A DNA stretch of 64,000 bases from [Bacillus] enclensis. GTDB lineage: Bacteria > Bacillota > Bacilli > Bacillales > Bacillaceae_B. The stretch is taken from positions 1,034,249-1,098,248 of the forward strand of contig NZ_KQ758482.1 in NCBI RefSeq assembly GCF_001456935.1. Direction: 5' to 3'. Position numbers and translations under genes: made by a program. Positions 13,066 to 31,457 of this stretch are shown one piece after another; the stretch's first letter is position 1; each line of letters starts with the position of its first letter. The notes beneath the pieces are model-generated. The model was not told the DNA's origin, searched no databases, and saw only the letters and a list, made by a program, of their open reading frames with translations.

Positions 13066-13077
13066 ACTATCACCCTC

Positions 13078-15635: not shown

Positions 15636-15749
15636 TTGTTTCACCTCCTTAAAATGGTTAATGCATGAAACTTGCATTCTAGATCATGCAAGTTATATAA
15701 TTCTAATTGCGCATAAAATAGTGAGATGCAGTAAGCTCTGGTGACAGCC

Positions 15750-15839: not shown

Positions 15840-15854
15840 TTTCCTCACTCCTTC

Positions 15855-16618: not shown

Positions 16619-16683
16619 AAGGGTTGCTCCTCTCTTTACCTATATATGGATTTCAATGTTCAGGCTTATTTCATAAAATGAAG

Positions 16684-16794: not shown

Positions 16795-16807
16795 TCAGAT
16801 CACCTCC

Positions 16808-17038
16808 TTATTGGTTGATACATTCCGTATCAAAATTAATCAAAAAAATATCTGGAAACAATTCGGTTAACTCATATTGATAAAACTGCTGAAATTTCAC
16901 CATTGTTTCTCTACCAGGATTGGAATCTCCTTTTTCAATTTTTCTTACGTATACTTCAGAAATCCCTAATGACTCAGCCACTTGTCTTTGAGTTAGATTC
17001 CTTTGTTTTCGTAACTCAATTAGTTTTCTTCTTTTCAT
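16808..17038 (-). CDS. Cro-like XRE regulator
   Basis: This 76-residue protein is a single helix-turn-helix domain (IELRKQRNLTQRQVAESLGISEVYVRKIEKGDSNPGRETMVKF). It is divergent from the repressor at 17220 and starts the early lytic operon, the place of Cro. Its last codons overlap an operator (16815-16833). It follows AGGAGGTGAAG. A promoter lies upstream on this strand: TTGACG and TAATAT, 17 bp apart (about 17108-17080). Confidence 0.88.
   Translation of the reverse strand: MKRRKLIELRKQRNLTQRQVAESLGISEVYVRKIEKGDSNPGRETMVKFQQFYQYELTELFPDIFLINFDTECINQ
16815..16833. promoter_or_regulatory. Repressor operator, perfect copy within the end of cro
   Basis: TTGATACATTCCGTATCAA is a perfect 7-bp-arm inverted repeat identical in its arms to the copy at 17055-17073. 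It sits in the last codons of the cro-like gene, upstream of the 36-aa gene. Confidence 0.7.
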
Positions 17039-17054
17039 CTCTTCACCTCCTATA

Positions 17055-17162
17055 TTGATACGTTTTGTATCAATAACTATATATTAATCGATATTTTTTG
17101 TATCGTCAACTATTTTTGATACATTTTTTATCATTTATTTATTCCGATAAAATTTGTATCTA
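17055..17162. promoter_or_regulatory. Lysis-lysogeny switch: four operators and divergent promoters
   Basis: Four 19-bp sites follow the pattern TTGATAC-N5-GTATCAA: 17055-17073 (perfect), 17088-17106, 17116-17134 and 17144-17162 (degenerate). They cover the early promoter on the minus strand (TTGACG...TAATAT) and the repressor promoter on the plus strand (TATAAT at about 17160-17165 with a weak -35). This is the classic control region between repressor and Cro. Confidence 0.75.
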
Positions 17163-17174
17163 TAATAAAGTTAA

Positions 17175-17190
17175 TACGTGAATTCACGTA
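17175..17190. repeat. 16-bp perfect palindrome in repressor leader
   Basis: TACGTGAATTCACGTA is a perfect palindrome, unrelated to the operator sequence, lying between the repressor -10 and its ribosome binding site. It could be a second regulator's binding site or a leader hairpin. Confidence 0.5.
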
Positions 17191-17219
17191 CATAGATCCG
17201 TACTAAGGAAGGGTTGCTT

Positions 17220-17615
17220 ATGCTAACAAAAAGGCTGAAAAATTTAAGAGGTAAAACAACCCAGGAAGAAGTCGCAGGACGAATTGGTATCTCGAGAGCG
17301 CGCTACTCCCATTACGAAAATGGACGAAGTGAACCTGATACTGAAACCCTAAATAAATTAGCTGATTATTACGATGTGAGTGTTGACTACTTACTTGGAA
17401 GAACTGATGATCCAAATGAAACCCTTAATAATAAAGGTAGTAACTCCAGTTCTCTCGATGAAATAAACAACCTCGTTAAAGAATACGGCATAGAACAATT
17501 TGGTTTCTTTGATATTGAGAAGTGGAAAGATCTTTCCCAGGAGGATATTGAAGAAATTAAGAAGCATTTTGAATATGTGGTGTTCCAGGCGAAACAGAGG
17601 AATAAAGATAATTAA
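17220..17615 (+). CDS. Prophage repressor, XRE family (CI/ImmR-like)
   Basis: This 131-residue protein has an N-terminal helix-turn-helix ([60 protein letters not shown]) and a C-terminal acidic helical part. It is divergent from cro across the operator array, so it is most likely the lysogeny repressor. It lacks a LexA-like peptidase domain, consistent with inactivation by the ImmA-type protease encoded at 27157. The start is ATG 17220 behind AAGGAAGGG. Confidence 0.88.
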
Positions 17616-17620
17616 ACACC

Positions 17621-17655
17621 AAAAAAGCTCAGAGAAGATTCTCCGAGCTTTTTTG
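17621..17655 (+). terminator. Repressor terminator (copy 1 of duplicated terminator)
   Basis: AAAAAAGCTC and GAGCTTTTTT arms enclose a second GAGA/TCTC pair. The sequence is nearly repeated at 18224-18258. Confidence 0.85.
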
Positions 17656-17738
17656 ATTCCATTATTGCCTTGTAAGAAGAATGAATAATGCATAAAGTAG
17701 GATATTCTACACAATCTAACCAAAAGGAGTGAACATAA

Positions 17739-18161
17739 TTGAAAAGAATATTGGCTTTAGTTACAATCACCGTACTATTAACCAGTTTAGTTTACACATC
17801 CGTTAGTGCTGAAAAACTTAGCCAACACGATTCGGAGCAGGTTACTGACTATTTTATACTTTCAGCGTTTCAAAACCAGATTGGCAAAGCAGTGAGCGAC
17901 TATTATAAAAATGATTCAGTTACAGTGACTTATTTGCATCCTTCTCAGAAAGATCTCGTTCAAGTGTTCCAAAGCGAAAAAGGAACCGACTTAGGATACC
18001 CCTATGTTGTAAAAGTCACTGTTAATTCATCTGATGGAACCAAGAGGCTGGGGACGGATACAATCACATTCGGTACATCTACACCACTTGAGAATAAGGA
18101 TGTAAATGTAGCAGCTATTACGACTAAGGTGATTGATTTTAAACACAACGCACCAAAATGA
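17739..18161 (+). CDS. Secreted DUF3888-like protein (lysogenic conversion candidate)
   Basis: This 140-residue protein has a clear signal peptide (MKRILALVTITVLLTSLVYT, cleavage near SVSA-E) and a mature domain with 'DYFILSAFQNQIGKAVSDYYKN' and a C-terminal AAITTKVIDFKHN, typical of DUF3888 proteins of unknown function in Bacillaceae. It is the first cargo gene after the repressor and is bracketed by two almost identical terminators, a typical 'moron' setup allowing expression in the lysogen. Confidence 0.78.
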   Translation: MKRILALVTITVLLTSLVYTSVSAEKLSQHDSEQVTDYFILSAFQNQIGKAVSDYYKNDSVTVTYLHPSQKDLVQVFQSEKGTDLGYPYVVKVTVNSSDGTKRLGTDTITFGTSTPLENKDVNVAAITTKVIDFKHNAPK

Positions 18162-18223
18162 AAAAGTAAATGGTTGACGGGTTCTCCTCACGAAGATTAA
18201 TTTGTAACTTCTAACGAAATTGA

Positions 18224-18258
18224 CAAAAAGCTCAGAGATGATTTCTCGGAGCTTTTTG
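18224..18258 (+). terminator. Terminator after DUF3888 gene (copy 2)
   Basis: AAAAAGCTCAGAGA and TCTCGGAGCTTTTT repeat the repressor terminator with minor changes, followed by the same TTCCATTA flank. Confidence 0.85.
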
Positions 18259-18292
18259 AATTCCATTAAAACCACCTTAGCAGGAGATGGTA

Positions 18293-18478
18293 CTAGAAGT
18301 TAACTAGAATAAACAAAAGAATAAAAAGGGATAGTCCCAAACAAACAATAGCTACTATTTTTGACTGTACAGCAACACGCTTATCACCTTCATGTAAGCT
18401 TTCAATAAAATTAAGAGTAAAGGAAAAACATAAAATGAATAGCGAAATTGAAATAAAACTTAACCCGCCTAAACTCAT
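18293..18478 (-). CDS. Small two-helix membrane protein
   Basis: The 61-residue product has two hydrophobic segments (about 5-25 and 38-58) joined by a charged loop (ESLHEGDKRVAVQSK). The ATG at 18478 is placed well for GGAGGATGAGG; an ATG three codons upstream is too close. No family recognised. It lies beside a YcxB-like gene on the same strand and may form a pair with it. Confidence 0.6.
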   Translation of the reverse strand: MSLGGLSFISISLFILCFSFTLNFIESLHEGDKRVAVQSKIVAIVCLGLSLFILLFILVNF

Positions 18479-18542
18479 ATACCTCATCCTCCATCTACTC
18501 CGTTAACCTGCCCGTTCGTATAAGTCCTATAATTAATTTACT

Positions 18543-19115
18543 TCAGCTATTCCCCGTTATTTTATTCTTTTCAGCAGTAACATTCTCGTTTATCATTTTT
18601 TTAAATAGCTTTATCTTTTCATCGGATTCGAAAAATCTTTTGGGGATTACCATGGCTTTATTTCTTGATACATATATAAGAAACATCGGAGCGAATTCTT
18701 TAATAGAAACAATTTCATTCCAATCAATTGCGCTTATCGATCTCCCTCTTTTTTGAATTATTCCAGTATCACTAAATGTATAGATTAGTTCATTCTTTAT
18801 CAATTGGTCACTCTTATATTCTCGAGTTGCTTTCACTCGAATAATTACTTTTGCATAAAGAAAAATTAAAGCTGTTATACAAACTGAAACTGTTGAACTA
18901 ATCAAAAGAATTGCTGCCATGTCTCCAAAATTAAAGATATCCCCTGGATTATATTGAATGTATATTAACCCTAGAAAGAGTACTATATAAGTAGATATCG
19001 TTATCCACAGTATCCATCTACTAGTATGAAAGGATGAAAACTTTTTATATTCTTTTGCTGTTAAAGTACCGCGAACAGACAGTTCTCTGCTGGTATCTAT
19101 ATCTTTGTTGCTCAT
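18543..19115 (-). CDS. YcxB-like membrane protein
   Basis: This 190-residue protein has two transmembrane helices (about 30-55 and 65-90) followed by a cytoplasmic domain with ELIYTFSDTGIIQKRGRSISAIDWNEIVSIKEFAPMFLIYVSRNKAMVIPKRFF, the hallmark of YcxB-like proteins. Their function is unknown. The ATG at 19115 follows AAAGGGGGAG. It is AT-rich compared with the host genes, fitting phage cargo. Confidence 0.82.
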   Translation of the reverse strand: MSNKDIDTSRELSVRGTLTAKEYKKFSSFHTSRWILWITISTYIVLFLGLIYIQYNPGDIFNFGDMAAILLISSTVSVCITALIFLYAKVIIRVKATREYKSDQLIKNELIYTFSDTGIIQKRGRSISAIDWNEIVSIKEFAPMFLIYVSRNKAMVIPKRFFESDEKIKLFKKMINENVTAEKNKITGNS

Positions 19116-19231
19116 TGACACTCCCCCTTTTATTCAAATTTAATATGTCTTCCCTAATCTAATACCAATTATTTCAATAAATTCTTAATTACTCAAGGGT
19201 AAATTCACTATTATGAGATACTTAATGTAAA

Positions 19232-19259
19232 CAAAAACCCCCAAATCAAGGGGGGTTTT
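19232..19259 (-). terminator. Rho-independent terminator after CheX-like gene
   Basis: AAAACCCCCC and GGGGGTTTTTG arms on the minus strand with a T run; it ends the transcript of the gene at 19264-19710. Confidence 0.85.
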
Positions 19260-19263
19260 CTAA

Positions 19264-19710
19264 TTAGTGGATAGTTAAAATGACATCCATCTCTCCAATA
19301 TCCAAAATACTCGCAGATAATTTAAGAGCAACCTTATGACCGTTGGTTGTGACTTTCCCCTCCACTACAGTAGGCGGGGTAATATCAATTTCAACGTCTT
19401 CACTATAAATAATTCTACTGATGTTCCCTGAGATCATGTTTCCAAATTCTCCTTGGAAGGACGTGAGCATATCCCCTTCCACACTGACTCCATACATTTT
19501 TTCAGCTATGCTGCTGCTTGTATGCTTCTTCGTCATCAGGTACATGGTTCCCTTTATATCTCCTGTAATTCCAATTACAACACCTAATTCGGTCTTGATA
19601 TCCTTATCTCTGAAGAGAGTTGGTTTTTCCATTTGTACCTCAAATGGAACTACTGACTTAATTGCTGTTGTTGTTGAATTTAGTAGATGCGTTACTAGTT
19701 GACTGGACAT
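19264..19710 (-). CDS. CheX-like chemotaxis phosphatase family protein
   Basis: This 148-residue protein matches the CheX/CheC family: SVVPFEVQMEKPTLF, LGVVIGITGDIKGTMYLMT, and a catalytic-type helix SFQGEFGNMISGNIS with the conserved Glu and Asn (E..N) that dephosphorylate CheY-P. A C-terminal strand region (MDVILTIH) follows. CheX-type phosphatases reset the flagellar switch. A stand-alone copy in a prophage is unusual. ATG follows AAGGAGTG. Confidence 0.82.
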   Translation of the reverse strand: MSSQLVTHLLNSTTTAIKSVVPFEVQMEKPTLFRDKDIKTELGVVIGITGDIKGTMYLMTKKHTSSSIAEKMYGVSVEGDMLTSFQGEFGNMISGNISRIIYSEDVEIDITPPTVVEGKVTTNGHKVALKLSASILDIGEMDVILTIH

Positions 19711-19990
19711 ACCAACACTCCTTAGTTTTACTCACTTTTATATCGGTTGGCTTGTCCAAGGATTTTACTATTCTAATTTAATATTTTATTATGTTCTAGA
19801 GGCTTACTCCCCTACCATTCCGTCTCCAAATTTTTACTGTTACCTAGGATAATATCGGTATATGGCCAGAAGTATTTTACTATCAATCTTATCTTTCACT
19901 AAGTAAATTTCTATTTCATCAACCAGAACTAATAAATCTTAGTTTTATATTAACAAGTATTTCTTCCACTTACCTCTTTATATATTTCAT

Positions 19991-21058
19991 TTAATTTGTT
20001 GGTTTTAATACTAATTGGGAAAGTTCAGGATACTTTTTCTTTATTTTTTCAGAATGAAATAAATCAGTAAGGTAATTGTTTAAAGTATTCACAGCATCAA
20101 GACATTTTTCAGTTTTTTCGAAGTCAGGTAAATACCCCTCGTGTACAACATTATTTCTTAATAAATATGTATTTTCCCACCAATTTCCTACTGGTGAATC
20201 AATATCATCTACATTGAAGTCCCCACCAAGCCTTTTGTGAAAATGATCTATAACCATGCTTTTGAATCTCATCTCATTACTTTTCTTATCAATTTCGCTT
20301 TTTGAGAACCCTTCTTTTTTTAGTAAATATTTATACAAGGCAGTTAAGAAAATTTCCACAGAAGTTTGAGAATCAATTACAGCTCTAGTGTAATCACCAT
20401 TGCTAAGGCTTCTTTTTGATCCATAGAATAATTCAGCTGCACGAAAAAATGGATTATTAGGCAATAAATCAATACCTTCCATCACTCTTTTAGTATTTAT
20501 ATCAGTGAGATATCCTCCGCCCTGCTCAAGCTTATTGAAGTTTAATTGGAATAAACCTTCTGATTTTAAAGTATAATTCTTAGGGTCTATTATTGAATAT
20601 AAAATTGTAGGATCTAATACTTCTCTAGTAATTTTAGAAACATAAGGGTCTTTAGTCAGTACGATAATGGAAGAAACCAATTGATTTAACCCACCCACCA
20701 ACAAATCAAATTTTTCTGATAGAAATTCTTCTAACTTATCTAATGAAGGCTTATCCTTAGAAATATAGACCATTTCAACTCTTGTGCACTTTTTAGGAAG
20801 ATTAAGAGGTTCTTCATTATAGGCACCAGTATAAACATTTACTTTGTTTTCTATAGTATGAAAACGATAATGGCATAACTCATTTTTGTTAACATGGTAT
20901 GTTAAATGATTTTGATTCTTTAATGGGATAAAAAACGGGACAATAATACCAAATATCAACAACTGTTTAGCCTTAAAATATTTTTCGATTTCTGGTTTTA
21001 ACTTCAGTATGTAATTTTCTTTATTGTAGTAAAAATTTCTACCATTCATATCAGTCAA
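19991..21058 (-). CDS. HEPN-motif protein, candidate defence gene
   Basis: This 355-residue protein has an N-terminal domain I do not recognise (about 1-190) and a helical C-terminal domain (about 210-340) with SQTSVEIFLTALYKYLL and NTYLLRNNVVHEG. R301-N-N-V-V-H306 fits the R-x4-H catalytic motif of HEPN ribonucleases. It lies downstream of the Septu pair on the same strand. It starts at TTG, 7 nt after AAAGG. It may be an independent abortive-infection RNase or an accessory to Septu; neither is shown. Confidence 0.6.
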   Translation of the reverse strand: MTDMNGRNFYYNKENYILKLKPEIEKYFKAKQLLIFGIIVPFFIPLKNQNHLTYHVNKNELCHYRFHTIENKVNVYTGAYNEEPLNLPKKCTRVEMVYISKDKPSLDKLEEFLSEKFDLLVGGLNQLVSSIIVLTKDPYVSKITREVLDPTILYSIIDPKNYTLKSEGLFQLNFNKLEQGGGYLTDINTKRVMEGIDLLPNNPFFRAAELFYGSKRSLSNGDYTRAVIDSQTSVEIFLTALYKYLLKKEGFSKSEIDKKSNEMRFKSMVIDHFHKRLGGDFNVDDIDSPVGNWWENTYLLRNNVVHEGYLPDFEKTEKCLDAVNTLNNYLTDLFHSEKIKKKYPELSQLVLKPTN

Positions 21059-21122
21059 CTAACAACCTTTCTTAGATAGAATATTCAAAAACGGAAACTT
21101 TTTTCACTTTTTTCAAAGAATC

Positions 21123-21148
21123 AGGACCCTTATCTATGATAGGGTCCT
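21123..21148 (-). terminator. Hairpin between ptuB and the HEPN gene
   Basis: AGGACCCT and AGGGTCCT form an 8-bp stem. The T tract is poor on both strands, so termination may be partial. Confidence 0.4.
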
Positions 21149-21154
21149 TAATTT

Positions 21155-21862
21155 TCATATTGTTTTCGTATCACTTTCTTGTTCTAGGAACAAGGAGCCA
21201 AATTCTATGGTTAAAGATTCGTTTGCTTTTATTATCCATCTCTTAAAACCTGTATATGCAGAACTATTTCTTAAATGTCTGGAAATTTGCTTCTTTATAT
21301 TATTAATTTCTTCTAAGTCATCTTCATGGTCATGTTCTAGCTCATCATACTCAAACAGGAGAGACTGGAAAGCCAAAATTTCTTTTAATAAATTTTTTTT
21401 GATAGTTTCTGCTTCTTCAGTTTTTAATATAGTAGTACCGTTATAAACTTTATTTAATAACTCGACAGTTTTTTCAACTCTTTCATCATTCTTTAATGCA
21501 GTCACTTCTACACTAGATTTTGGATAAGGATCTACTTTTAATTTGATACTATTTTCTATATCATCCTCTACCATAGTACAATTTAAAATATTATCATAAT
21601 GATGTAATTTAATATTATTGCAGTGGGAACAAGACAAAAACAAGTTCTCCCAACTGAACTTTTTATCTATATCTTCTCTATGAGAAACTAGATGTTCAAC
21701 ATTAATAGAGATTAAAGCTTTATTTTCACAAATATAGCATTTATTCTTAAAATCTTGTTTTAACTGGCTAATTACATCTGCTTTTAGGTAAGTACCATTA
21801 TTTTTGTGTTTTTCAATTTCCAAACTTGGAGGAGCCGGCAAAGATTTTTCAAAATAGATCAA
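21155..21862 (-). CDS. ptuB: Septu defence HNH nuclease PtuB
   Basis: This 235-residue protein has the PtuB layout: LPAPPSLEIEKHKNNGTY at the start, a zinc pair C42-x2-C45 (KCYICENK), VEHLVSHRED with H57 and H61, WENLFLSCSHCNNIK with C78/H80/C81, and a helical tail. This is an HNH nuclease with two zinc-binding knuckles. Its ATG overlaps the stop of the ATPase gene by 4 nt (ATGA). PtuB is the effector nuclease of Septu, directed by the PtuA ATPase. Confidence 0.88.
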   Translation of the reverse strand: MIYFEKSLPAPPSLEIEKHKNNGTYLKADVISQLKQDFKNKCYICENKALISINVEHLVSHREDIDKKFSWENLFLSCSHCNNIKLHHYDNILNCTMVEDDIENSIKLKVDPYPKSSVEVTALKNDERVEKTVELLNKVYNGTTILKTEEAETIKKNLLKEILAFQSLLFEYDELEHDHEDDLEEINNIKKQISRHLRNSSAYTGFKRWIIKANESLTIEFGSLFLEQESDTKTI

Positions 21863-23421
21863 GATCTCATCTTCTCCTTTCTTAGTTGTTCAAGCCTATA
21901 AAACTCTAATTTCACTTCTTGAGCGAACTTATCCGGGACACTCTTTAAATATTGTTTTAGTTGAAAAAGTTCATCAATATCTTCTTCAGTAATGTTTTCG
22001 ATACCTACTATTAATTCTCTATATCTTTCTAACTTTTTCTTTACTGCTACTGAATACTTATCAATGCCAAAGTACGCTTCAACAATGCCTTCATAAGAAT
22101 AGGGAGATAAGTCTTCGATACGTAATTTGTGTTCCAAGTCATAAACAACGGAATTCTCAGCAGAGCTAAGTACAAAAGGAGAATGAGTCGTCACTATAAA
22201 CTGTATTCTCGGAAAAAGGGCACACAAAAAAGGAAAAATTTTCTTTTGTAGACTTACATGTAAATGAGTTTCTATTTCATCTATTAATACAATTCCTTCA
22301 AGATTATAAATACCACTTTCATTATTCTTATTTTCCATTCTCATTAAGATATCAGATACAATATTAATTACAGATGCGTAACCATCAGAGAGGTGCTGAA
22401 AAGAATACTTTGTTTTGTTTTTTTCTTTAATAAAAAAATTTAATTCTTTGAAATCAAACTCAAGTTTAAAATCTTCACTCTCGAATAACTCTCTAAATGC
22501 TATTTCTAAATTATTAAACCATTTATCAATTTTTTTCACTAAAGCCTTATCATTAGATTGATTTGCAAAAGCTTGTTCCGCTTTCATATTAACTAAATAT
22601 TGTATGAAAATATTACTTGGACGATCATCTGCACGATATTTTAAGTGTAATTTAATTTTGCTTATAGAATCAGGCACTATCATATTTGTTGTTCTTTTAG
22701 AATCAAAGTATGCAATGATGAAGTTTCCATTATCATAAGAAGACTGTAATTCGTACACTTCTGAAAACGTTGGATTTATTTCTCCATATCTTCTCATGGA
22801 TTCTTTAATGCTTTTAATATTACTTGTAATTCTCTCTCGTTCTGAATTCTCTACATTAGAGTTATTTATCCTTTCTTTTAAATTTACTATGGTTTCCTTC
22901 CATTCTTTAAGATGACGGAAGTTGCCATCCTCAAAAGACAATAAATAATTCTTCAACTCTAATAGAAAAGATGTTTTCCCACTTCCATTTTTCCCAGTTA
23001 ATATTAAATGCTTTTTCTTTTTACTACCTAAATCTATTTGTAAATTTTTGAAATTTCGGAAGTTATTTATTTCTAACTTCTGGATGAAATATTTTGAGGA
23101 AGAAAGATCATTTTTTATTCTTTCCAAAAAATCTTTAAATAGGTGATTATGTACTTCTAGAAACACACCGTCATTAAATTTATAAACACTATTTATTTTC
23201 CCGGGTGAATATATATACCATTTCCAATAATCAGGAGGACCTATTTTATCAATATTCATATAGTTCAAAATTCTTTGTTGATTTTCATTTAAGTCAATGC
23301 CATTAATTAAGGAAGTCGTATTGGGATCCCATAAATCTAAAACATGAATTATTCTATTTATATAGTCTATTTCAACTTCCACCCTGAATGGATTATCATA
23401 TCCCTCTAATTTTAATATCAT
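21859..23421 (-). CDS. ptuA: Septu defence AAA ATPase PtuA
   Basis: This 520-residue protein is an ABC/SMC-like ATPase: Walker A GKNGSGKTS at 143-151 after KLEINNFRNFKNLQIDL, a coiled-coil insertion (about 165-220), a signature-like HLSDGYAS (343-350), Walker B LEGIVLIDE (374-382) and a switch His in TTHSPF (411-416). About 110 residues precede the ATPase core. With the overlapping HNH gene it forms a type I Septu operon. Base composition is AT-rich, consistent with horizontally moving cargo. Confidence 0.88.
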   Translation of the reverse strand: MILKLEGYDNPFRVEVEIDYINRIIHVLDLWDPNTTSLINGIDLNENQQRILNYMNIDKIGPPDYWKWYIYSPGKINSVYKFNDGVFLEVHNHLFKDFLERIKNDLSSSKYFIQKLEINNFRNFKNLQIDLGSKKKKHLILTGKNGSGKTSFLLELKNYLLSFEDGNFRHLKEWKETIVNLKERINNSNVENSERERITSNIKSIKESMRRYGEINPTFSEVYELQSSYDNGNFIIAYFDSKRTTNMIVPDSISKIKLHLKYRADDRPSNIFIQYLVNMKAEQAFANQSNDKALVKKIDKWFNNLEIAFRELFESEDFKLEFDFKELNFFIKEKNKTKYSFQHLSDGYASVINIVSDILMRMENKNNESGIYNLEGIVLIDEIETHLHVSLQKKIFPFLCALFPRIQFIVTTHSPFVLSSAENSVVYDLEHKLRIEDLSPYSYEGIVEAYFGIDKYSVAVKKKLERYRELIVGIENITEEDIDELFQLKQYLKSVPDKFAQEVKLEFYRLEQLRKEKMRS

Positions 23422-23562
23422 GTATTAACCTCCAGTAAAACTAAAAATTGCATACTATTCATAAACTTTTTTATTAAACTAACCACATAATTAATATAGC
23501 ATAAAATTACTATTAATCTAATATTACCCTGTTAAAATATAGGATATTTATTAAGACTCAAT

Positions 23563-23586
23563 AAAAAACCTCCCAATAAGGGAGGC
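23563..23586 (-). terminator. Rho-independent terminator of the GGDEF/EAL gene
   Basis: CCTCCC/GGGAGG stem followed on the minus strand by TTTTTTATTG. Confidence 0.8.
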
Positions 23587-23628
23587 ATTAAAGGTTGTTA
23601 ATTAAATTCAAATTTTCGTATTTTTTAA

Positions 23629-26600
23629 TCACCTTTTGGAAAAGTATTCTTTGGGACCAACCTTAAGAAACTTTCTATCAGTGATTACTTTCTTAGTCTT
23701 TAAATCTAGCTGCAGCTGATTAATCAACTTAGAAAGAGAACTCGTTTCTTGCTCTGATAAGATAAATTGCATTCCATATTGATTAACATTTTCAATATAG
23801 TCATTTTTCCATACCACATTCCCATGTAAGATTACTGGTTGGTTCAATAACTCCGCTTCAATAATAAGAATGATATCGTCTCTTACTGGCAAGTTAATTT
23901 GAGATAAGAATCTCACTCCTCCTAGCCCAATATCCTCTATTAATACTTCTGTTGTACCAAGTTTCACTTTTTTTCCCTTTATTTCAGAGATAGTCAAATC
24001 CGCTAAGAGTGGAAAAGTAAAATTGATTCTAAAGTATTTTCTTCTATTCTCAAAGTTACTTCTTTTTGACATTTGTATTGGTTTTATGAATTGCTTTTTC
24101 AGGAGCCTTTCCAATTCATTTGGTAGTACAGGCTTACTGAATAAATACCCTTGAATATAGTCGCATCCTTTTTGTCTTAAAAAGTTTAATTGGTCTTGAT
24201 CCTCTACTCCCTCAGCTACAATTGTTAATCCTAACCCATGAGCCATTTGAATTAAGCTTGTAATTATAATCTGATCCTCTTCTTTATCCATAATGTTATC
24301 AATAAATGACTTATCAATTTTCAAAGTATTTAATTTAAAGTTTTTCAAATGTGTAATGGACGAATAACCTACACCGAAGTCATCCAGTGCAATTTTTATC
24401 CCCATTCCCCTAATTTGTTCTATGGTAGATAATACTATCTCAGATGGTTCAATGAGAGTTGATTCGGTTAATTCGAATTCAATTAACCCTGGATCGACTT
24501 GATATGTGTGTAATAACCCTCTAACTAGACCAGTTAAATTCTTTTTTAGTAATTGCTTCGGTGACAGATTGACAGAAATTGGTACTGGGGTGAGATTCTT
24601 AGAGTTCCATTCTTTGATCTGCTCAAATACTTTCTTAATTACCCATTCACCTATCTCACAAATTAAATCACTTTCCTCAGCAATTGGGATGAACTCACTT
24701 GGTGACACTTTGCCCCATTCAGGATGCTGCCATCTAATTAATGCTTCTGCACCAATAATCTCCCCGGTTTCAGTCTTAACTTTTGTTTGGTACTCAATGA
24801 AAAAATCATTATTTAGAAGAGCTTGTCTCATATCTCTCTCTAGATGGTAAATTTTATAGGACTCAATATCCATTGATGGAGTGTAGATTTTATATGTGTC
24901 CCTACCCAAGTGTTTTGCATTATACAATGCAGTATCTGCGGTTTTTAATATAGATTTAGCGGTCACATCTTCCCCATCTTCGAAAGGGTAAACACTAATA
25001 CCAATGCTAGTAGTAATATGAAGGTCAAATTCTCCTATGGTATATACTTTTCTCACTTCAGAAGTGATAAGATTTGATATTCTAATTGCCTCTTCTACTT
25101 GTACATCATAAAGAATAACCGCAAACTCGTCTCCGCCCATTCGAGCAACTAGGTGCTTGTCAGCCACACATTCCTTTAATCTTTTAGAAACAGCAATTAA
25201 TAACTCGTCGCCTATTTCATGACCCAACATATCATTAACATGTTTAAACCTATCAAGGTCCAACAGTAAAACAGAAAAATTATTCGCCATATTATCGTTT
25301 AGTAATTCTTGAACTGATTCATCAAACATCCTTCTATTTGGTAAGTCCGTCAAATAATCATGGTAAGCAGAATGCTGAATTTTTTCTTCAGCAACCTTTT
25401 CTTCGGTTATATCCCACATTATTCCATCAATTCTTATCAGTTCACCATTTTCATTTAATACTGGGAAGCACTTTGTGTCCGCCCATCTTGTATCGCCTGA
25501 GCTATGAATAAACCTATGTTTAATAAGTACTTTTTCACCCACAAATAAACCTTTTATAGATTTCATTATTTTTTCTTTATCTTTTGGATGAAGCACATTT
25601 TCCCAAAAGCTAGGAGAACTAATCACACTCTCTAAAGAATATCCGTAAATCTCCTCAAATCCATTTGAGCAAAACAGTACTTTTTTTGATTTTACATCTA
25701 TTGACCATATAACCTCTTCAAGATTGTTATATATAGTTTCTATTTGCTTTTCTTTTTCTTCAAGTTTTTCTTTCACTTCCAAGAAATCGGTCATGTCATA
25801 GAATGTACCAATAATTTTCTCGACGCTATCTTCCACTCCATAAACAGGTCTTCCTGTTACCTGAACTATCCGTTGAGTCCCATCCTTCCGAATAATCCTT
25901 GAATAATGTGAAAACCTTTTTCCTTTCTGTATAGTTTCTGACATTACATTCACACATTCTTCTACATCTTCTGGATGCAACATGTTTAGATATCCTTGAA
26001 AAGTGGGCGGAGTATCAGTCTCCGGATCCATACCGAAAATACGAAATAACTGTTTGGACCAATATCCTTCATCTCTAGTGAAATCGTATTCCCAGCTTCC
26101 AATATTGGCTATTTCCTGGGCATCATTAAGATTTCTCTGTACATTATGAATATTTGCCTCGTATTCTTTTAACAGTGAAATATCCTTAACTATAACGGTT
26201 AAGCTTTCAACTTTATCTTCATGAAGGTTGGGGATTAGGGTGATGCAAGTTTTAAGTACTTCGTTTTGCTTAGTGGAGATGAATGCTTGGTATTGCACCA
26301 AATCTCCTGAGAAAGCAGCTTTGAGGTTTAAGTCAAACTCTCTTACATGTTCTTCTGGAAAAAAATCGAGGTACGAATCGATATCATTTTTATTAAATCC
26401 TGTTAATTTATACAGTGATTCATTAATTGCTTTTATCTCTCGATCAGGAGTTAGGCTAAATACTCCTTCCGGATACTGATTGAATAATTCCTTACTTAAT
26501 TCAATTGATTGTTTAAGTTTTCTTTCATTTGTAACGTCTTTGGCAATCACCAATATGCCACAGACTTTTTTGTCTTTATAACAAGGTGATGCAGCCACAT

Positions 26601-26934
26601 GTAGTTTAAAGTTTTGTGATTTTTTGTTTTTCAAATCAATTGTAGTTACTTGAGGCTTACCTTTTATGGTTTTATTAAATCTTTTCATCATTTCTTCTAA
26701 AAAAATCTTATCAATATATGGGATGAACGATTTACCCAATACTTCTTTTTCACTTACACATAATAACTTTTCTCCAGACTTATTGATTGCTAGAAAGTTT
26801 CCTTCTACATCGAGTAAAAATGTTGCATCTATATTGACTTTAAATGCTTCTATAAGATAGTCGTTAATATCTATGTTTATGTTTGAATCTTTACCTTTTT
26901 TCCATAATGATTTAAATGTGTTCAAGTGTTTCAC
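23629..26934 (-). CDS. PAS-GGDEF-EAL-PilZ cyclic-di-GMP protein
   Basis: This 1101-residue protein has about four PAS/PAC modules (within 30-515, with typical 'RKDGTQRIVQVTGRPVYG' and 'WADTKCFPVLNENGELIRIDG' PAC ends), a GGDEF domain with intact MGGDEF and a GIGISVYP strand, an EAL domain with intact EALIRWQHP, DDFGVGYSS and VAEGVED, and a C-terminal PilZ-like domain (RRKYFRINF, then EDIGLGG where the usual Ser is Gly). It may both make and degrade c-di-GMP and sense it. No TM helix: a cytosolic sensor. Its size and location inside a prophage are unusual. Confidence 0.92.
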   Translation of the reverse strand: MKHLNTFKSLWKKGKDSNINIDINDYLIEAFKVNIDATFLLDVEGNFLAINKSGEKLLCVSEKEVLGKSFIPYIDKIFLEEMMKRFNKTIKGKPQVTTIDLKNKKSQNFKLHVAASPCYKDKKVCGILVIAKDVTNERKLKQSIELSKELFNQYPEGVFSLTPDREIKAINESLYKLTGFNKNDIDSYLDFFPEEHVREFDLNLKAAFSGDLVQYQAFISTKQNEVLKTCITLIPNLHEDKVESLTVIVKDISLLKEYEANIHNVQRNLNDAQEIANIGSWEYDFTRDEGYWSKQLFRIFGMDPETDTPPTFQGYLNMLHPEDVEECVNVMSETIQKGKRFSHYSRIIRKDGTQRIVQVTGRPVYGVEDSVEKIIGTFYDMTDFLEVKEKLEEKEKQIETIYNNLEEVIWSIDVKSKKVLFCSNGFEEIYGYSLESVISSPSFWENVLHPKDKEKIMKSIKGLFVGEKVLIKHRFIHSSGDTRWADTKCFPVLNENGELIRIDGIMWDITEEKVAEEKIQHSAYHDYLTDLPNRRMFDESVQELLNDNMANNFSVLLLDLDRFKHVNDMLGHEIGDELLIAVSKRLKECVADKHLVARMGGDEFAVILYDVQVEEAIRISNLITSEVRKVYTIGEFDLHITTSIGISVYPFEDGEDVTAKSILKTADTALYNAKHLGRDTYKIYTPSMDIESYKIYHLERDMRQALLNNDFFIEYQTKVKTETGEIIGAEALIRWQHPEWGKVSPSEFIPIAEESDLICEIGEWVIKKVFEQIKEWNSKNLTPVPISVNLSPKQLLKKNLTGLVRGLLHTYQVDPGLIEFELTESTLIEPSEIVLSTIEQIRGMGIKIALDDFGVGYSSITHLKNFKLNTLKIDKSFIDNIMDKEEDQIIITSLIQMAHGLGLTIVAEGVEDQDQLNFLRQKGCDYIQGYLFSKPVLPNELERLLKKQFIKPIQMSKRSNFENRRKYFRINFTFPLLADLTISEIKGKKVKLGTTEVLIEDIGLGGVRFLSQINLPVRDDIILIIEAELLNQPVILHGNVVWKNDYIENVNQYGMQFILSEQETSSLSKLINQLQLDLKTKKVITDRKFLKVGPKEYFSKR

Positions 26935-27111
26935 CTTTCTCTTTAGATAATGAAAATTTTAAAAATCAATTCTTAATATACCATAATATTACTTTATACC
27001 TAATAAATCACTGGGAATATATGAAAGTTGAGTGTGATTCTATTTTATATTTGTTTGTACATTTTCAAATTCCATTTAGAAACCAAAATTTGTAACTAAC
27101 TATAGAATCTT

Positions 27112-27138
27112 GAAAATACGAACATATGTTTGTATAAT
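27112..27138 (+). promoter_or_regulatory. Promoter of immA-int with overlapping LexA box
   Basis: A near-consensus promoter (TTGAAA, 17 bp, TATAAT at 27133-27138) is overlapped by CGAACATATGTTTG (27119-27132), 13 of 14 positions of the Bacillus LexA box. The site would be blocked by LexA until DNA damage. It precedes the TTG start of immA by 18 nt. Confidence 0.75.
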
Positions 27139-27156
27139 GTTTCCGAGGTGAGCAAA

Positions 27157-27648
27157 TTGTACCAAGAATATTATCAAACCACTGAACTTGAAGACTGGGT
27201 CTCTAACATGTATAGAAAAATTGGGATCTCCACCCCCTCCCTCATTAACGAACAAAAAATTTCACGTTACTTTGGTATTTACCTAAAAAAGAAACCCATG
27301 CACAGCAGCTTTCATATTTTGGGCAGATATAGGGATATCGTTATTGACGATCGTGAGCCTAAAGAGAAGCACAGAGAAATATTCTTTCATGAACTATGTC
27401 ATATCCTAAGGCACTCTGGAATTCAAAGTATGATGCCCACTGCATTTAGAGAACTCCAAGAATGGGATGCCCAGCATTTTACTCAATATGCAGCTATCCC
27501 CCATCACATGCTTAAGTATATTCCCTTTCATGAACATGACGTAGTTAATCAAATGTCCATCATGTTTCAAGTCTCACCCGAGCTCTGTGAAATGAGATTG
27601 GAACAGGTTAAAAGAAGATTGCAAATATCTAGTAATATTACCTATTAA
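27157..27648 (+). CDS. ImmA/IrrE metalloprotease
   Basis: The product (163 residues from TTG at 27157, behind GAGGTGA) has the HELCH metal site (FFHELCHILRH) and the downstream EWDAQHFTQYAAIP helix with the third ligand Glu. ImmA proteases cut the XRE-type immunity repressor after DNA damage. Unusually, its repressor partner is about 9.5 kb away, with the cargo block in between. It is the first gene of the operon with the integrase; an ATG-like upstream frame is inside the promoter. Confidence 0.88.
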   Translation: MYQEYYQTTELEDWVSNMYRKIGISTPSLINEQKISRYFGIYLKKKPMHSSFHILGRYRDIVIDDREPKEKHREIFFHELCHILRHSGIQSMMPTAFRELQEWDAQHFTQYAAIPHHMLKYIPFHEHDVVNQMSIMFQVSPELCEMRLEQVKRRLQISSNITY

Positions 27649-27702
27649 GCTATTTTTTTGTTCTGAGTGAGTGTATATCGTTAAACAAAAGGAAGTGATC
27701 AT

Positions 27703-29166
27703 ATGAAGGCAGCAATATACGTACGAGTAAGTACAGCTGAACAAGCAGCTGAAGGTTATTCCATTCGGGCTCAAACTGACCGATTAAAAGCCTACTGTGT
27801 GTCCCAGGGATGGGAGATATTAGAATTCTATGTAGATGATGGCTACAGTGCTAAAGACACGAACAGGCCGAATCTGAAGCGAATGATGAAGCATATAGAG
27901 GAAGGTTTGATTGATTGTGTGTTGGTATATCGTTTAGATCGACTAACACGCTCTGTCAGAGACCTTTATACGATCTTAGAAACCTTTGATAAGTATGATT
28001 GCAAGTTCAAGTCCGCCACGGAAGTTTATGATACGACCACTGCAATGGGAAGAATGTTCATAACCATTGTGGCTGCACTTGCTCAGTGGGAACGTGAGAA
28101 CACCGGTGAGCGTATTCGCATGGGGATGGAACAAAAAGCCCGGGAAGGAAATTGGGTTATTAACCAAGCTCCTTACGGATATGAGATTGATAAGGAGAAT
28201 AAAACACTTATCATTAATGACCGAGAAGCAATGTTGGTAAAAAGAATTTATGATGATTATCTCAGTGGGAAGACCATGAGGAATATTGCTATCGATTTCA
28301 ACAAATCTAACATAACCACTAAATCCGGTGCTATATGGAATGACTTTAAGATTAAGTACATACTTTCAAACCCTCTTTATATCGGTACAATGCGATATAA
28401 CTATCGAACAAATAAAGAAAATTATTTTGAGGTTGAAGATGCACATCCAGCAATCATTTCAAAAGAGACATTTGAGAATGTACAAAAAATCAAAGAAAGT
28501 CGCAGAATCGTTCATCCCCGTTCAGCGACCAGCAAATTTATTTTCTCTGGTATTGCAAAATGTGCCCGCTGCGGATCTCCCCTGGCTGGAAAGTATGGTT
28601 ATTATAAGAGTAAAACTAAAAAGGATCATATTTCTCGGCCCAGAAGTTATTACTGTACAAAAAGACGGTTAGGGAAATGCGATCTGCCTAACATTGGGGA
28701 AAATCATTTAGAAGTGCAATTTCTGAACTACTTGAACACCTTCAAAATAGATCCAGACATCATTGAAGATGTTAGCCATGAAAAAGAAGATAATGCAAAT
28801 GAACAACAAAAGAAGGCTCTTCAAAAAGAATTAAAAGAAATTGATAACCGTCGGAAGAAATGGCAGTATGCTTGGGTAAATGAAATGATTAGCGATGAAG
28901 ATTTCTCTAATAGGATTGAAGAGGAAAATAGCAAAGAGAATGATATCAAAAATCAACTAACATCATTGGAGCCTCGAGGTGAAAAAATGAATACAGAAGA
29001 TTTGTATGGAATCCTTCTTGATATAAAATCTAACTGGAACCAGCTTGAGGCACTGGAGAAGAAAACGCTGCTTCAAATGTTCATGAAAAAGATAGTCGTT
29101 AACAGAGATAAAAAATCTTCAGGAGATCCAAATTCAATTAGTATTCTCGATGTTGAATTTTATTGA
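27703..29166 (+). CDS. int: Large serine recombinase (phage integrase)
   Basis: This 487-residue protein starts with a resolvase catalytic domain (MKAAIYVRVSTAEQ, catalytic Ser10; YRLDRLTRSVRDL), then a recombinase domain (APYGYEIDKENKT..I...EA..VKRIYDDYLSG), a zinc ribbon (CARCGSPL ... YYCTKRR..KCDLP) and a long coiled coil (about 360-450). Such integrases act in one direction unless aided by a directionality factor. It ends about 60 bp from the comGA junction, and is in the immA operon. Confidence 0.96.
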   Translation: MKAAIYVRVSTAEQAAEGYSIRAQTDRLKAYCVSQGWEILEFYVDDGYSAKDTNRPNLKRMMKHIEEGLIDCVLVYRLDRLTRSVRDLYTILETFDKYDCKFKSATEVYDTTTAMGRMFITIVAALAQWERENTGERIRMGMEQKAREGNWVINQAPYGYEIDKENKTLIINDREAMLVKRIYDDYLSGKTMRNIAIDFNKSNITTKSGAIWNDFKIKYILSNPLYIGTMRYNYRTNKENYFEVEDAHPAIISKETFENVQKIKESRRIVHPRSATSKFIFSGIAKCARCGSPLAGKYGYYKSKTKKDHISRPRSYYCTKRRLGKCDLPNIGENHLEVQFLNYLNTFKIDPDIIEDVSHEKEDNANEQQKKALQKELKEIDNRRKKWQYAWVNEMISDEDFSNRIEEENSKENDIKNQLTSLEPRGEKMNTEDLYGILLDIKSNWNQLEALEKKTLLQMFMKKIVVNRDKKSSGDPNSISILDVEFY

Positions 29167-29186
29167 TTTATACAAGACGATCAAGT

Positions 29187-29906
29187 TTAATTTTTGGTTG
29201 TCTTTATTTTATTGAGTCCTATTATATTTACTGGGTGGCCGGTAAGCGCTGCCCTTATTGCAGTCTCAGCAGTTTCCCTGTCCCTGATCTCGCCGACCAT
29301 GATAATGTCGGGATCATGCCTCAATATGGCTTTTAATCCCGCAGAATAAGTGATTCCAGCTTTTTCATTCACTTGAATCTGCACCATATCTTCATGATCT
29401 TTCTCAATGGGATCTTCCAACGTGATGACATTTCGGTTGAGAGCGGACGAGCAATGATGGACGAGCGAATATAAGGTCGTGGTTTTCCCGCTGCCAGTAG
29501 GGCCTGTGAAAATGATGAGTCCATGGGAATACATGAGAAGGGCTAGAAGTTTTTTTGCTGAAGAAGGGTAAAGGGACATTTTTTCGAGCGGGACCTGAAA
29601 CTCCTGCGGAAGGATCCGGATGACCAGGCTTTCTTTGAGATGATTGGTAGGCAGTGTGGAGATCCTGAGGGAAACCGGGGAGTCTTTGATCATCGTGTTG
29701 AAGGATCCGCTTTGAGGTTTCCGTTTTTCCCCGATATCCATCTGCGCCATGAATTTCAGATGGGCGATGAGTCTTTCACCTTGTTCGTGGGGGATCGATT
29801 GAAATGGGGACAGCACCCCCGTCTTGCGGAACTGGATGTGGTAATCATTGAGTCTGGGGATAAAGTGAATATCGGATGCATCATTGGTAATGGCATCCTT
29901 GAGCAT
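29187..29906 (-). pseudogene. comGA: comGA, 5' portion, disrupted by the prophage
   Basis: ComGA is the traffic ATPase of the competence pseudopilus. The fragment keeps ASDIHFIPR, Walker A FTGPTGSGKTTTLYSL, the Asp box, and Walker B VGEIRDRETAETAIRAALTGH; the last ~18 residues come from prophage DNA and the C-terminal third is lost. In frame, coding similarity extends about 15 codons upstream of the ATG at 29906 (to about 29,950) but without a canonical start: only ATA, ACG and similar codons follow AAAGGTGG. The gene is inactive unless the phage excises. Confidence 0.9.
29225..29250. other. Prophage attachment site (right end) within comGA
   Basis: The ComGA reading frame matches its family up to RAALTGHPV, encoded at about 29,228-29,255, and then reads into unrelated sequence. 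Around the break the minus strand has an imperfect inverted repeat TTACCGG CCACC CAGTAA, typical for a serine-integrase core. The exact crossover dinucleotide cannot be fixed without the other end. Confidence 0.6.
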
Positions 29907-29959
29907 GATCTCTGAAAGAGCTTCTACTGATTGATATATCGTTGTGGCACCACCTTTCT

Positions 29960-30477
29960 TTTTCCATAACTACTATATACGACAAAAGTTTACAAAATCC
30001 TTTATTTTTCTGAGTTGAGATGGAAAGTTTTTCAAAGGGGCGTTAACTATAGCTTTGCTTTTGTCTTTGCAGTGGTTCCAGCTTGGTTTTTGTTGAAGAT
30101 GCGGACAATAGGATAAAAATATATCCATTTTCAAAGGATTTTTTTACCTTTTTTATAAATTTTTTAAGTTTTTGATGAATAATGACCGGAATGCATCGCT
30201 GAAATTCCGGAGCGATCATGATTTATGATCCATTTTCAGGTTTTATGATCCATTCGACAAAAAATACGCGCCAAATTAAGAATTTATGATCCTAAACTGA
30301 AAAATATGATCCTAATTTGAATTTTATGATCTTACAAGAATAATTCTAATCTAGACTCCTTTTCTAAGCTTCTGTATCAACCTTTGCCTCTTATTAAATA
30401 ATCTATCTAAAAAAACTTTAAACACACTGTATATTTTCCACCCAACCTTCTCATACTATCTCTTGTAACATCCCATT
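29960..30477. other. Intergenic region upstream of comGA with phased TATGATCC repeats
   Basis: No gene is visible. The comGA promoter must lie near 29,960-30,050 on the minus strand (TTGTAA ... TATAGT type). Five copies of TATGATC(C/T) start at 30224, 30244, 30295, 30305 and 30325, mostly TTTATGATCC; spacings are 20, 51, 10 and 20 bp, close to multiples of a helical turn. The remainder is AT-rich without obvious structure. Confidence 0.6.
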
Positions 30478-30549
30478 GGGCTATAGCCAAGCGGTAAGGC
30501 ATCGCACTTTGACTGCGACATGCGTTGGTTCGAATCCAGCTAGCCCAGT
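30478..30549 (+). tRNA. tRNA-Gln (anticodon TTG)
   Basis: The acceptor arms TGGGCTA and TAGCCCA pair perfectly; the anticodon stem TCGCA/TGCGA encloses the loop CTTTGAC with anticodon TTG; the T arm has GGTTCGAATCC. CCA is not encoded. It lies between comGA and a hairpin repeat. Confidence 0.95.
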
Positions 30550-30782: not shown

Positions 30783-31163
30783 CTAACTGCTCTTCTTCAA
30801 ACTGCTCTTTTTACCGGAAAAGCTCTTAAGGCCGTCAGGATTGTATCCGACGACGAGCTTTTTTCCGTCGGTCAATAACGGGCGGCGAAGGAGTTTCGGT
30901 TCCTGGACGATCAGGTCGATCACTTTGGATAAAGGCAGGTCATTTACATCCGTCCCAAGCTGTTTGAATGTCTGGCTTCGGGTGGCCAGGATTTCATCGA
31001 GCCCTTCAGTAGTTAATGAGAGTAATTGGACGAGCTCATCATGGGTCGGTGTATCCCGGAAAAGATGGCGTTCATCAAAGGCAATTGAATTTGCATTGAG
31101 CCATTTTTTTGCTTTTCTACAAGAGGTGCAGCTTGGATAAGTAAAAAACGTTAAGTTTTCCAT
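30783..31163 (-). CDS. mgsR: Spx/MgsR-type regulator (ArsC family)
   Basis: This 126-residue protein begins LTFFTYPSCTSCRKAKKWL with a C-x-x-C redox pair and has the Spx/ArsC thioredoxin-like fold with KVIDLIVQEPKLLRRPLLTDGKKLVVGYNPDGLKSF. MgsR is the Spx paralogue controlling part of the general stress response in Bacillus. Its position beside yqgY and yqgX matches B. subtilis yqgZ (mgsR). Start is ATG 31163 behind AAAGGAGG. Confidence 0.88.
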   Translation of the reverse strand: MENLTFFTYPSCTSCRKAKKWLNANSIAFDERHLFRDTPTHDELVQLLSLTTEGLDEILATRSQTFKQLGTDVNDLPLSKVIDLIVQEPKLLRRPLLTDGKKLVVGYNPDGLKSFSGKKSSLKKSS

Positions 31164-31457
31164 TTGAATTCCTCCTTTAATTGTATAAATAAGCAAGTTA
31201 CCTTATTAGTTAAATACATTGTATACTTTTTGTATAACTTTTGTACAGTAATTACACTCGGTAATTTATGAATTTTTTTCAAACGCTTCAAAACCTTGCT
31301 AATAGCAGGGTGAAGGCGGTTTCGGAATACGTTTTCAGCTTCTGGGAGTAGAAATCACGTAATCGTCACAAACTATCATCAAACAGATATTTACTTTTGC
31401 AGTATGATTCATTTATAATATTGAATGATGGACTTAGGGTGCAAAGGAGGGTTACAT

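What the first reader, a model, noticed from the sequence alone, without database searches (positions are those of the whole stretch)
27703..29906. Prophage splits comGA: competence switched off, perhaps reversibly
The ComGA frame matches its family through Walker B and TGH and then enters prophage sequence next to a large serine integrase. This cuts the ATPase and the rest of the comG operon from the promoter. Known parallel: Listeria A118-like phage in comK, where excision restores competence. By inference, excision here might restore DNA uptake.
Basis: partly seen in the sequence, partly recalled or inferred. Interest (0 to 1): 0.72.

Follow-up and report, generated by a model that had tools for sequence, protein, structure and literature searches.

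The report
Prophage splits DNA-uptake motor gene comGA
A complete-looking virus has lodged inside the gene for the motor that bacteria of the genus Rossellomorea are thought to need to take up DNA, and the same gene has been hit repeatedly, at three different points, by unrelated mobile elements in this genus, which suggests a running conflict over DNA uptake.

Summary
comGA codons ~3-237 lie at window 29234-29939 (-). The rest of comGA, then comGB and further comG genes, lies 42.4 kb away at the other end of an apparently complete siphovirus-type prophage. Both ends share the core GCCACC, and a close phage-free relative has unbroken comGA there. No second comGA was found. Precise excision would restore the frame; nothing shows that excision happens or is regulated.

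Prophages in competence genes are known, including one in comGA of Staphylococcus pseudintermedius. The surroundings are less ordinary. In this genus 14 of 36 species genomes have comGA split, at three sites, with serine integrases of several lineages and a tyrosine integrase; a fourth site appears elsewhere in the order. Outside the genus 4 of 134 are split. The paralogue pilB is open in 34 of 34 listed. In three genomes comGA looks rebuilt beside prophage remains; one keeps an attL scar upstream. Best reading: recurrent phage attack on the competence ATPase, with occasional host repair.

The parts
29234..29939 (-). comGA 5' part (codons ~3-237 in the numbering: P-loop, DPD and up to TGH; motif names recalled), host DNA
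   Evidence: T2SSE 8.1e-77; NCBIfam ATPase_ComGA above cut-off; comparison with G023; probable non-AUG start at ~29939
29187..29233 (-). prophage right arm; supplies the false C-terminus (PVNIIGLNKIKTTKN) and stop of the truncated ComGA frame
   Evidence: homology to comGA ends at TGH; arm resembles the reverse complement of the left-end arm
29234..29239 (.). att core GCCACC (reads GGTGGC on +), shared with the left junction at G000:C1:1021085-1021090 outside the window
27703..29166 (+). large serine integrase, 487 aa
   Evidence: Pfam Resolvase 4.3e-45, Recombinase 3.3e-24, Zn_ribbon_recom 1.8e-9
27130..27648 (+). ImmA-like M78 metallopeptidase beside the integrase
   Evidence: PF06114 6e-10, phrog_87 metallo-protease 3.9e-14; homologue found in 7 of 8 present-day site-A elements of the genus, not in G033
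1..29233 (.). in-window part of the 42.4 kb prophage (whole: G000:C1:1021091-1063481)
   Evidence: junctions; terminase, portal, major head, tape measure, Dit, minor head/tail, holin, endolysin, RecE/RecT, DnaD-like loader, repressor
4850..8016 (-). portal (4850-6295), terminase large (6306-7601) and small (7582-8016) subunits
   Evidence: PHROGs
2156..3091 (-). major head protein
   Evidence: phrog_10 4e-53
12208..15338 (-). DnaD-like helicase loader, RecT-like annealing protein, RecE-like exonuclease
   Evidence: PHROGs
17214..17615 (+). HTH repressor (ImmR/CI-like; label inferred)
   Evidence: phrog_8 transcriptional regulator 9.5e-28
30476..30549 (+). tRNA-Gln(TTG) upstream of comGA, marks the native flank
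   Evidence: ARAGORN
30783..31196 (-). ArsC-family gene (mgsR-like name recalled), next native flank gene
   Evidence: PF03960 1.5e-25; found within the ~1.5 kb flank of comGA in 17 of 30 genus loci examined, own included

Best explanation
A temperate siphovirus-type phage integrated through its large serine integrase at an attB inside comGA (the TGH codons, about codon 237 of 359 in G023 numbering). It splits the DNA-uptake ATPase and separates comGB and the downstream comG genes from the comGA promoter. Shown by sequence: the split, the shared core, arms that resemble an inverted repeat, an apparently complete prophage, and intact halves. Inferred: without ComGA the cell cannot build the transformation pseudopilus, so it is non-competent while lysogenic; precise excision would restore the gene. 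The most likely reason this site is used is selective: phages that stop transformation avoid being replaced by homologous recombination with phage-free DNA. This fits comGA being hit repeatedly at three sites by different integrases in this genus, and apparent rebuilding of comGA in three relatives.
For: Both halves in order, 42.4 kb apart, then comGB; core GCCACC and G023 empty site; PHROG modules. Recurrent: 14 of 36 genus genomes split; the split label needs 10 changes on a comGA-3' tree against a shuffled mean of 11.5 (minimum 6), so it is scattered, not clade-inherited. G000 and G020: of 28.1 kb of prophage aligned in blocks of 1 kb or more, 24.6 kb is 93-98% identical (3.5 kb, at the endolysin end and round the integrase, is 85-90%), while host flanks are 84-91%, so these phages most likely arrived separately. 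Three sites and several integrase lineages. Specific: pilB, which has the same TGH and P-loop motifs, has frames of 460-576 aa in 34 of 34 listed. Other competence genes kept: ComK twice in 36 of 36, ComEC full frame in all 23 genus genomes of a smaller draw. Rebuilt comGA beside relics in 3 genomes.
Against: No phenotype. Natural competence has not been shown for Rossellomorea by anything I saw. PilB, PilT and two other T2SSE ATPases exist in the genome and could in principle stand in for ComGA. Conserved single-copy genes are general targets of serine integrases (recalled), so convergence on comGA could partly reflect conserved DNA rather than selection. The own pilB core (GTCATC) differs from the own att core (GCCACC) at two positions, so pilB may be spared simply by site recognition, although core variants with GGTCAC/T occur at other site-A junctions. 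The own attP arms match each other at only 12 of 18 positions, reached by 26 of 5000 shuffles. The pneumococcal study links gene-disrupting sites with C1-type rather than ImmAR-type phages, whereas most site-A phages here carry an ImmA-like gene.
Confidence: 0.8

Rival explanations
1. Active lysogeny: the prophage is a regulated switch that leaves comGA under competence-inducing conditions without killing the cell, as described for Listeria comK, and re-inserts later.
For: In-frame restoration is possible and both halves are undecayed; dN/dS between the split genomes G000 and G020 is low (0.032 for the 5' half, 0.059 for the 3' half); integrase complete; ImmA-like protease in 7 of 8 present-day site-A elements, and ImmAR prophages excise reversibly in pneumococcus (PMC12637031, passages and abstract).
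Against: Insertions look recent (scattered at tips), so low dN/dS may only reflect history before insertion; other split-split pairs are higher (0.122 for one 5' pair; 0.042 and 0.121 for two 3' pairs), and summed dN/dS is slightly higher for split than for intact pairs (0.049 against 0.030 for the 5' half, 0.086 against 0.067 for the 3' half). No excisionase (RDF) was looked for or identified. The prophage carries full lysis and head genes, unlike a domesticated switch. Three lineages that seem to have rebuilt comGA suggest that excision alone did not suffice there.
Confidence: 0.25
2. Neutral target: comGA offers slowly changing DNA (P-loop, DPD, TGH codons) that integrases can rely on; competence loss is a side effect that carries no benefit for the phage.
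For: All three sites used in the genus fall on conserved motifs (motif names recalled); Rossellomorea may simply host more of these phages; pilB may be spared by sequence differences at the core.
Against: pilB has the same motifs but frames of 460-576 aa in 34 of 34 listed (13 of 35 against 0 of 33 without the own genome, Fisher p 7e-5); serine and tyrosine integrases both enter comGA; the genus is enriched over the rest of the order (14 of 36 against 4 of 134, Fisher p 6e-8; 2e-7 without the ascertained own genome). Genomes are not independent draws, so all p values are guides only.
Confidence: 0.25
3. The comG system is already dispensable here and the insertion only marks a dying pathway.
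For: Many species carry the split; ComGE scores below its cut-off (34.2 against 49) and the last, 133-aa ORF of the operon matched no NCBIfam family.
Against: Halves open and in frame; ComGC and ComGD pass their equivalog cut-offs, comGB lies in one 359-aa frame; comK and comEC are intact in the genomes searched; 22 of 36 genomes keep comGA and three appear to have rebuilt it.
Confidence: 0.1
4. In G016, G018 and G011 the extra comGA 5' copy predates the phage (tandem duplication first, then insertion into the spare copy), so comGA was never lost there.
For: Duplication order is not directly recorded; G018 and G011 showed no attL scar in the stretches read. That extra copies occur only in site-A genomes is no independent evidence, because G016 and G018 were recognised by their orphan copy.
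Against: In all three the orphan ends exactly at attR, so the spare copy would have had to be the one hit each time; in G016 an attL scar with about 28 nt of comGA from the core onward (one mismatch) sits directly before the whole copy.
Confidence: 0.2

Closest known systems
Prophage SpST71A in comGA of Staphylococcus pseudintermedius ST71 (PMC7029219, passages read)
   Same: ~44 kb prophage splits comGA; comK intact; competence presumed lost
   Different: one lineage-specific prophage and one reported split point (5' 509 bp of 988); integrase class not stated in the passages I saw. Here: three split points and several integrase lineages across species of one genus, plus apparently rebuilt genes
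Competence-gene insertions in comYC, comK, comFA, comM (Croucher et al. 2016, PMC4774983, passages read) and the pneumococcal prophage survey (PMC12637031, passages and abstract)
   Same: recurrent prophages in competence genes; two distinct comFA sites already reported as convergent; 44.1% of pneumococcal genomes carry insertions expected to inhibit transformation; arms-race model
   Different: comGA insertions and Rossellomorea were not described in the passages I saw, nor three or four sites in one gene, nor rebuilding beside a relic
Listeria A118-like prophage in comK (mechanism recalled; mentions seen)
   Same: serine integrase, insertion in a competence gene, restorable frame
   Different: comK is a regulator; excision-linked competence gene expression is reported there (recalled, and title in the reference list), not here
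phiMC1 in comGC of Macrococcus caseolyticus subsp. hominis (PMC6008420, passages read)
   Same: prophage in the comG operon, called negative lysogenic conversion
   Different: different gene of the operon, different att sequence

Membership tests
Large serine integrase | N-terminal resolvase domain, recombinase domain and zinc ribbon in a ~450-600 aa protein | tested here: met
Large serine integrase | near-palindromic attP arms and short shared core | tested here: met
   own arms 12 of 18 matching (26 of 5000 shuffles reach this), 14-16 of 18 in three site-A relatives (0 of 5000); core GCCACC
Large serine integrase | recombination activity on attB x attP and RDF-dependent excision | not testable with these tools
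   needs bench work
ComGA (NF041000 equivalog) | score above the curated cut-off | tested here: met
   307.1 against 300 bits for the 5' part alone; the 3' part alone scores 43.3, below the cut-off, matching 43 profile positions
ComGA | one uninterrupted frame at the head of comGA-comGG | tested here: not met
   split by 42.4 kb
Competence-disrupting prophage | intact-looking phage inserted in a competence gene present whole in close relatives | tested here: met
Competence-disrupting prophage | loss of transformability | not testable with these tools
   no phenotype data
Active lysogeny (phage regulatory switch) | precise excision would restore the reading frame | tested here: met
   shared core and empty site in relative G023
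Active lysogeny (phage regulatory switch) | regulated excision without lysis | not testable with these tools
   needs attB/attP PCR and viability assays
ImmAR-type lysogeny control | ImmA-like M78 protease together with an ImmR-like repressor | tested here: inconclusive
   protease at 27130-27648 and HTH repressor at 17214-17615 both present but ~10 kb apart, not adjacent

The most novel reading that the evidence does not exclude
comGA of Rossellomorea is a standing battlefield: phages of several integrase lineages (serine and tyrosine) have independently come to enter the DNA-uptake ATPase at three different codon positions, each position also used in at least one other genus of the order, where a fourth is seen too. 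The hosts answer by rebuilding a whole, promoter-bearing comGA next to the dying prophage, using a phage-free copy as template; one rebuilt gene has since been hit again at another site.
Probability: 0.45. Interest if true: 0.67.

Novelty: new variant of a known kind. Interest (0 to 1): 0.5.

Why it matters
In the papers I saw, the idea that phages block transformation to avoid being recombined out of the chromosome rests mostly on streptococci, Listeria and a few other groups. A genus in which about four in ten species genomes carry a split competence ATPase, at three sites and with different integrases, and in which some lineages appear to have rebuilt the gene, gives an independent and testable case with sister species in both states and a paralogue (pilB) for comparison. 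It could also show whether excision makes the loss reversible.

Tried and rejected
Phage-borne comGA 5' segment as a gene-restoring cassette (my first idea for the duplicate comGA copies): rejected for G016, where an attL scar lies upstream of the whole copy. The comGA query found no relative in viral contigs, although one viral contig fetched with the integrase (L157) holds comGA codons 210-240 beside it, as a prophage edge would. Hits in phage records are all below 60% identity and look to me like host or mislabelled contigs. The duplicates are closest to their own species' comGA.

A second comGA in the genome: rejected; the other four T2SSE matches are PilB-sized, PilT-sized and two further ATPases.

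Vertical inheritance of the split by G000 and G020: judged unlikely; most of the shared prophage is more alike than the host flanks, though 3.5 of 28.1 kb is not.

A fourth site inside the genus (G033): my first reading from alignment ends was wrong. G033's 5' part ends at TGH like the other site-A cases, and its 3' part has lost about 20 codons. I therefore speak of three sites in the genus and lowered the probability of the novel reading from 0.5 to 0.45 and the interest from 0.52 to 0.5.

A statistic comparing extra 5' copies in site-A genomes with others is dropped as circular.

A prophage promoter driving comGB onward: the consensus scan of the left junction found 3 promoter-like sites against 1.7 expected, one on the comG strand and ~260 bp upstream; uninformative.

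dN/dS as proof of continued selection on the split halves: only 2 (5') and 3 (3') close split-split pairs, and young insertions.

Not resolved: the integrase of G038 was not found among the three ORFs of 200 aa or more near its junctions that I scanned with Pfam; comGF was not tested against any family.

Full report
WHAT IS THERE. The window is G000:C1:1034249-1098248 of a 4.48 Mb genome in 18 contigs. The comGA 5' part occupies window 29234-29939 (-). At the TGH codons it passes into prophage DNA. The family search found the missing piece (T2SSE profile 235-361) at C1:1020768-1021094 and two comGB matches in one 359-aa frame just beyond it. ComGC and ComGD follow and pass their equivalog cut-offs; ComGE scores below its cut-off; the last, 133-aa ORF had no NCBIfam match; comGF was not tested. 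The two junctions share GCCACC, and G023, 96% identical over the 5' part, has one unbroken frame through the same point. From the two core positions the insert is 42,397 bp, counting one core. It carries terminase, portal, major head, tape measure, Dit, minor head/tail, holin, endolysin, RecE/RecT, a DnaD-like loader, a repressor and the integrase (20 prophage proteins were scanned with PHROGs): an apparently complete temperate siphovirus.

SECOND COPY. The genome has six T2SSE matches: the two comGA halves and four other ATPases. The best other match to the comGA 5' part is 45% identical and PilB-sized (561 aa).

RECURRENCE IN THE GENUS. Of 36 genus genomes (own included), 14 have a comGA 3' part in a frame of 105-238 aa with the 5' part elsewhere; 22 have one frame of 359-400 aa. 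In three of the 14 (G001, G015, G017) the halves are on different contigs and the split is read from the junction sequences. Sites, in the numbering: A, TGH, about codon 237 (G000, G001, G009, G012, G015, G020, G025, G033, and the older insertion of G011; relics in G016 and G018); B, P-loop, about codon 150 (G004, G006, the second insertion of G011, G027, G028); C, the DPD codons, about 212 (G017). In G033 the 3' part lacks about 20 codons next to the junction. Integrase identity to the window's: at site A 65-93% in the five undecayed relatives, and 48% over 386 residues in G033; at site B 35-39% for G004, G006, G011 and G028, and 26% for G027. Pfam assigns serine-integrase domains to those of G004, G027, G028 and G033 (G006 was not scanned), and a tyrosine phage integrase to G017 (site C) and to G049 (site C, another family). 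The attP arms resemble inverted repeats in the four site-A, three site-B and one other (G038) cases tested.

INDEPENDENCE. Split and intact states need 10 changes on a tree of the comGA 3' part, with a shuffled mean of 11.5 and minimum of 6: the split is scattered, not inherited by clades. The tree is short (342 columns) and comes from comGA itself, so the count is a rough guide. G000 and G020 share 29 kb of prophage; of 28.1 kb in blocks of at least 1 kb, 24.6 kb is 93-98% identical and 3.5 kb is 85-90%, while the host flanks are 84-91%. Separate arrival is the simplest reading.

OUTSIDE THE GENUS. In an even draw of 150 genomes of the order, 139 had a ComGA C-terminal match; 5 of these are of the genus. 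Of the other 134, 4 are split: G140 (site A), G145 (B), G049 (C) and G038 (a fourth position, about codon 257). G077 had a 313-aa frame, but its pieces adjoin, and it is counted as not split. The 11 genomes without a match were not followed. Fisher p for 14 of 36 against 4 of 134 is 6e-8, and 2e-7 without the own genome; genomes are not independent draws. Sites A, B and C are thus each seen in at least two genera. Of 10 named loci with relatives of the integrase, 8 carry a comGA 5' piece within the fetched flank, among them Fictibacillus fluitans and Bacillus sp. SA1-12; in the other two none was found.

CONTROLS. pilB has the same TGH and P-loop motifs. Its core in this genome (GTCATC) differs from the own att core (GCCACC) at two positions, but resembles core variants at other site-A junctions. 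PilB-type matches with frames of 460 (G035) to 576 aa are listed in 34 of 36 genus genomes; the list was cut, and G001 and G018 are not shown. ComK is present twice in 36 of 36. ComEC has frames of 758-781 aa in all 23 genus genomes of a smaller draw, ten of which have split comGA.

REBUILT COPIES. G016, G018 and G011 each have an orphan comGA 5' part ending exactly at attR beside integrase or prophage remains, plus a second comGA 5' part with its own upstream region joined in frame to the native 3' part (in G011 that gene is now split again at site B). Copy and orphan are 94%, 90% and 98% identical in DNA for G016, G018 and G011. In G016 an attL scar followed by about 28 nt of comGA from the core onward, with one mismatch, lies directly before the whole copy; none was found in the stretches of G018 and G011 that I read. 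The copies begin at different upstream points: in G018 inside a tRNA-Gln copy (68 of 74 nt match), in G011 before IS-like DNA (my recognition, from the sequence), in G016 within a short patch resembling the native upstream. Because the new copy joins seamlessly across attB, its template must have been phage-free, either a cured sister chromosome or incoming DNA; that is inference. Duplication before insertion is not excluded.

HOW IT LIKELY WORKS. Shown: position, core, arms, gene content, recurrence. Inferred from established knowledge of ComGA: the truncated protein lacks the C-terminal third and the downstream genes lose their promoter, so pseudopilus assembly should fail. Inferred from the arms-race model (PMC4774983, passages read; PMC12637031, passages and abstract): the phage gains by preventing its own removal through recombination. 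An ImmA-like protease is found in 7 of 8 present-day site-A elements; G033 has none detectable, and the relics of G018 and G011 give a broken match and none. This leaves reversible excision open, and contrasts with the pneumococcal pattern, where C1-type phages dominate gene-disrupting sites.

LITERATURE. Eight searches were made. Passages were read in PMC7029219, PMC4774983, PMC3948429, PMC12637031 (also its abstract) and PMC6008420. Of these only PMC7029219 describes a prophage in comGA. Other listed papers on S. pseudintermedius that mention comGA (PMC8297860, PMC12540322) were seen only as listings. I saw no account of Rossellomorea comGA, of three or more sites in one competence gene, or of rebuilding beside a relic; absence is limited to those searches of that open-access library. 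The two papers listed for Rossellomorea with prophage were seen only as listings.

VERDICT. The finding is real, and its interpretation is largely right in structure but unproven in function. The single case is a new member of a known kind; the genus-wide pattern makes it a new variant worth testing.

Noticed in passing
window 29937-29939 (-) and comGA starts of all 36 genus genomes: comGA seems to lack an AUG/GUG/UUG start: codon 3 after a strong Shine-Dalgarno (AAAGGTGGTG or AAAGGCGGTG) is ATA, ATT or ATC in 34 of 36 genomes, AAT in G015 and GTT in G030. Some genomes do have in-frame ATG/GTG/TTG codons further up (G001 an ATG at codon 1), and most have an ATG at codon 14, so this is not proven.
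   Followed up: partly
window 21155-23421 (-): Septu-type defence pair inside the prophage: PtuB-like HNH protein (1.3e-61) and PtuA-like ATPase (1.1e-119).
   Followed up: partly
window 23629-26934 (-): 1101-aa PAS-GGDEF-EAL-PilZ protein inside the prophage, to my knowledge unusual cargo that could alter host c-di-GMP signalling; it lies in a stretch (about 19828-27120) with no block over 150 bp shared with the related G020 prophage.
   Followed up: no
window 19991-21058 (-) and 18543-19121 (-): Two prophage proteins (355 and 192 aa) without a match in NCBIfam, PADLOC or PHROGs at the thresholds used.
   Followed up: no
L125 (G027:C1), 2803191-2813346: A ~10 kb element, far smaller than the prophages, sits at the comGA P-loop site with its own divergent serine integrase; perhaps a satellite or defence island.
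   Followed up: no
L160, after the integrase gene: A metagenomic viral contig carries a sequence resembling the comGA site-A attachment site next to a 51% identical integrase.
   Followed up: no
G000:C1:1267844-1271234: A PilB-PilT-PilC-like type IV pilus gene group exists besides comG in this genome, and PilB-sized relatives are listed in 34 of 36 genus genomes.
   Followed up: no
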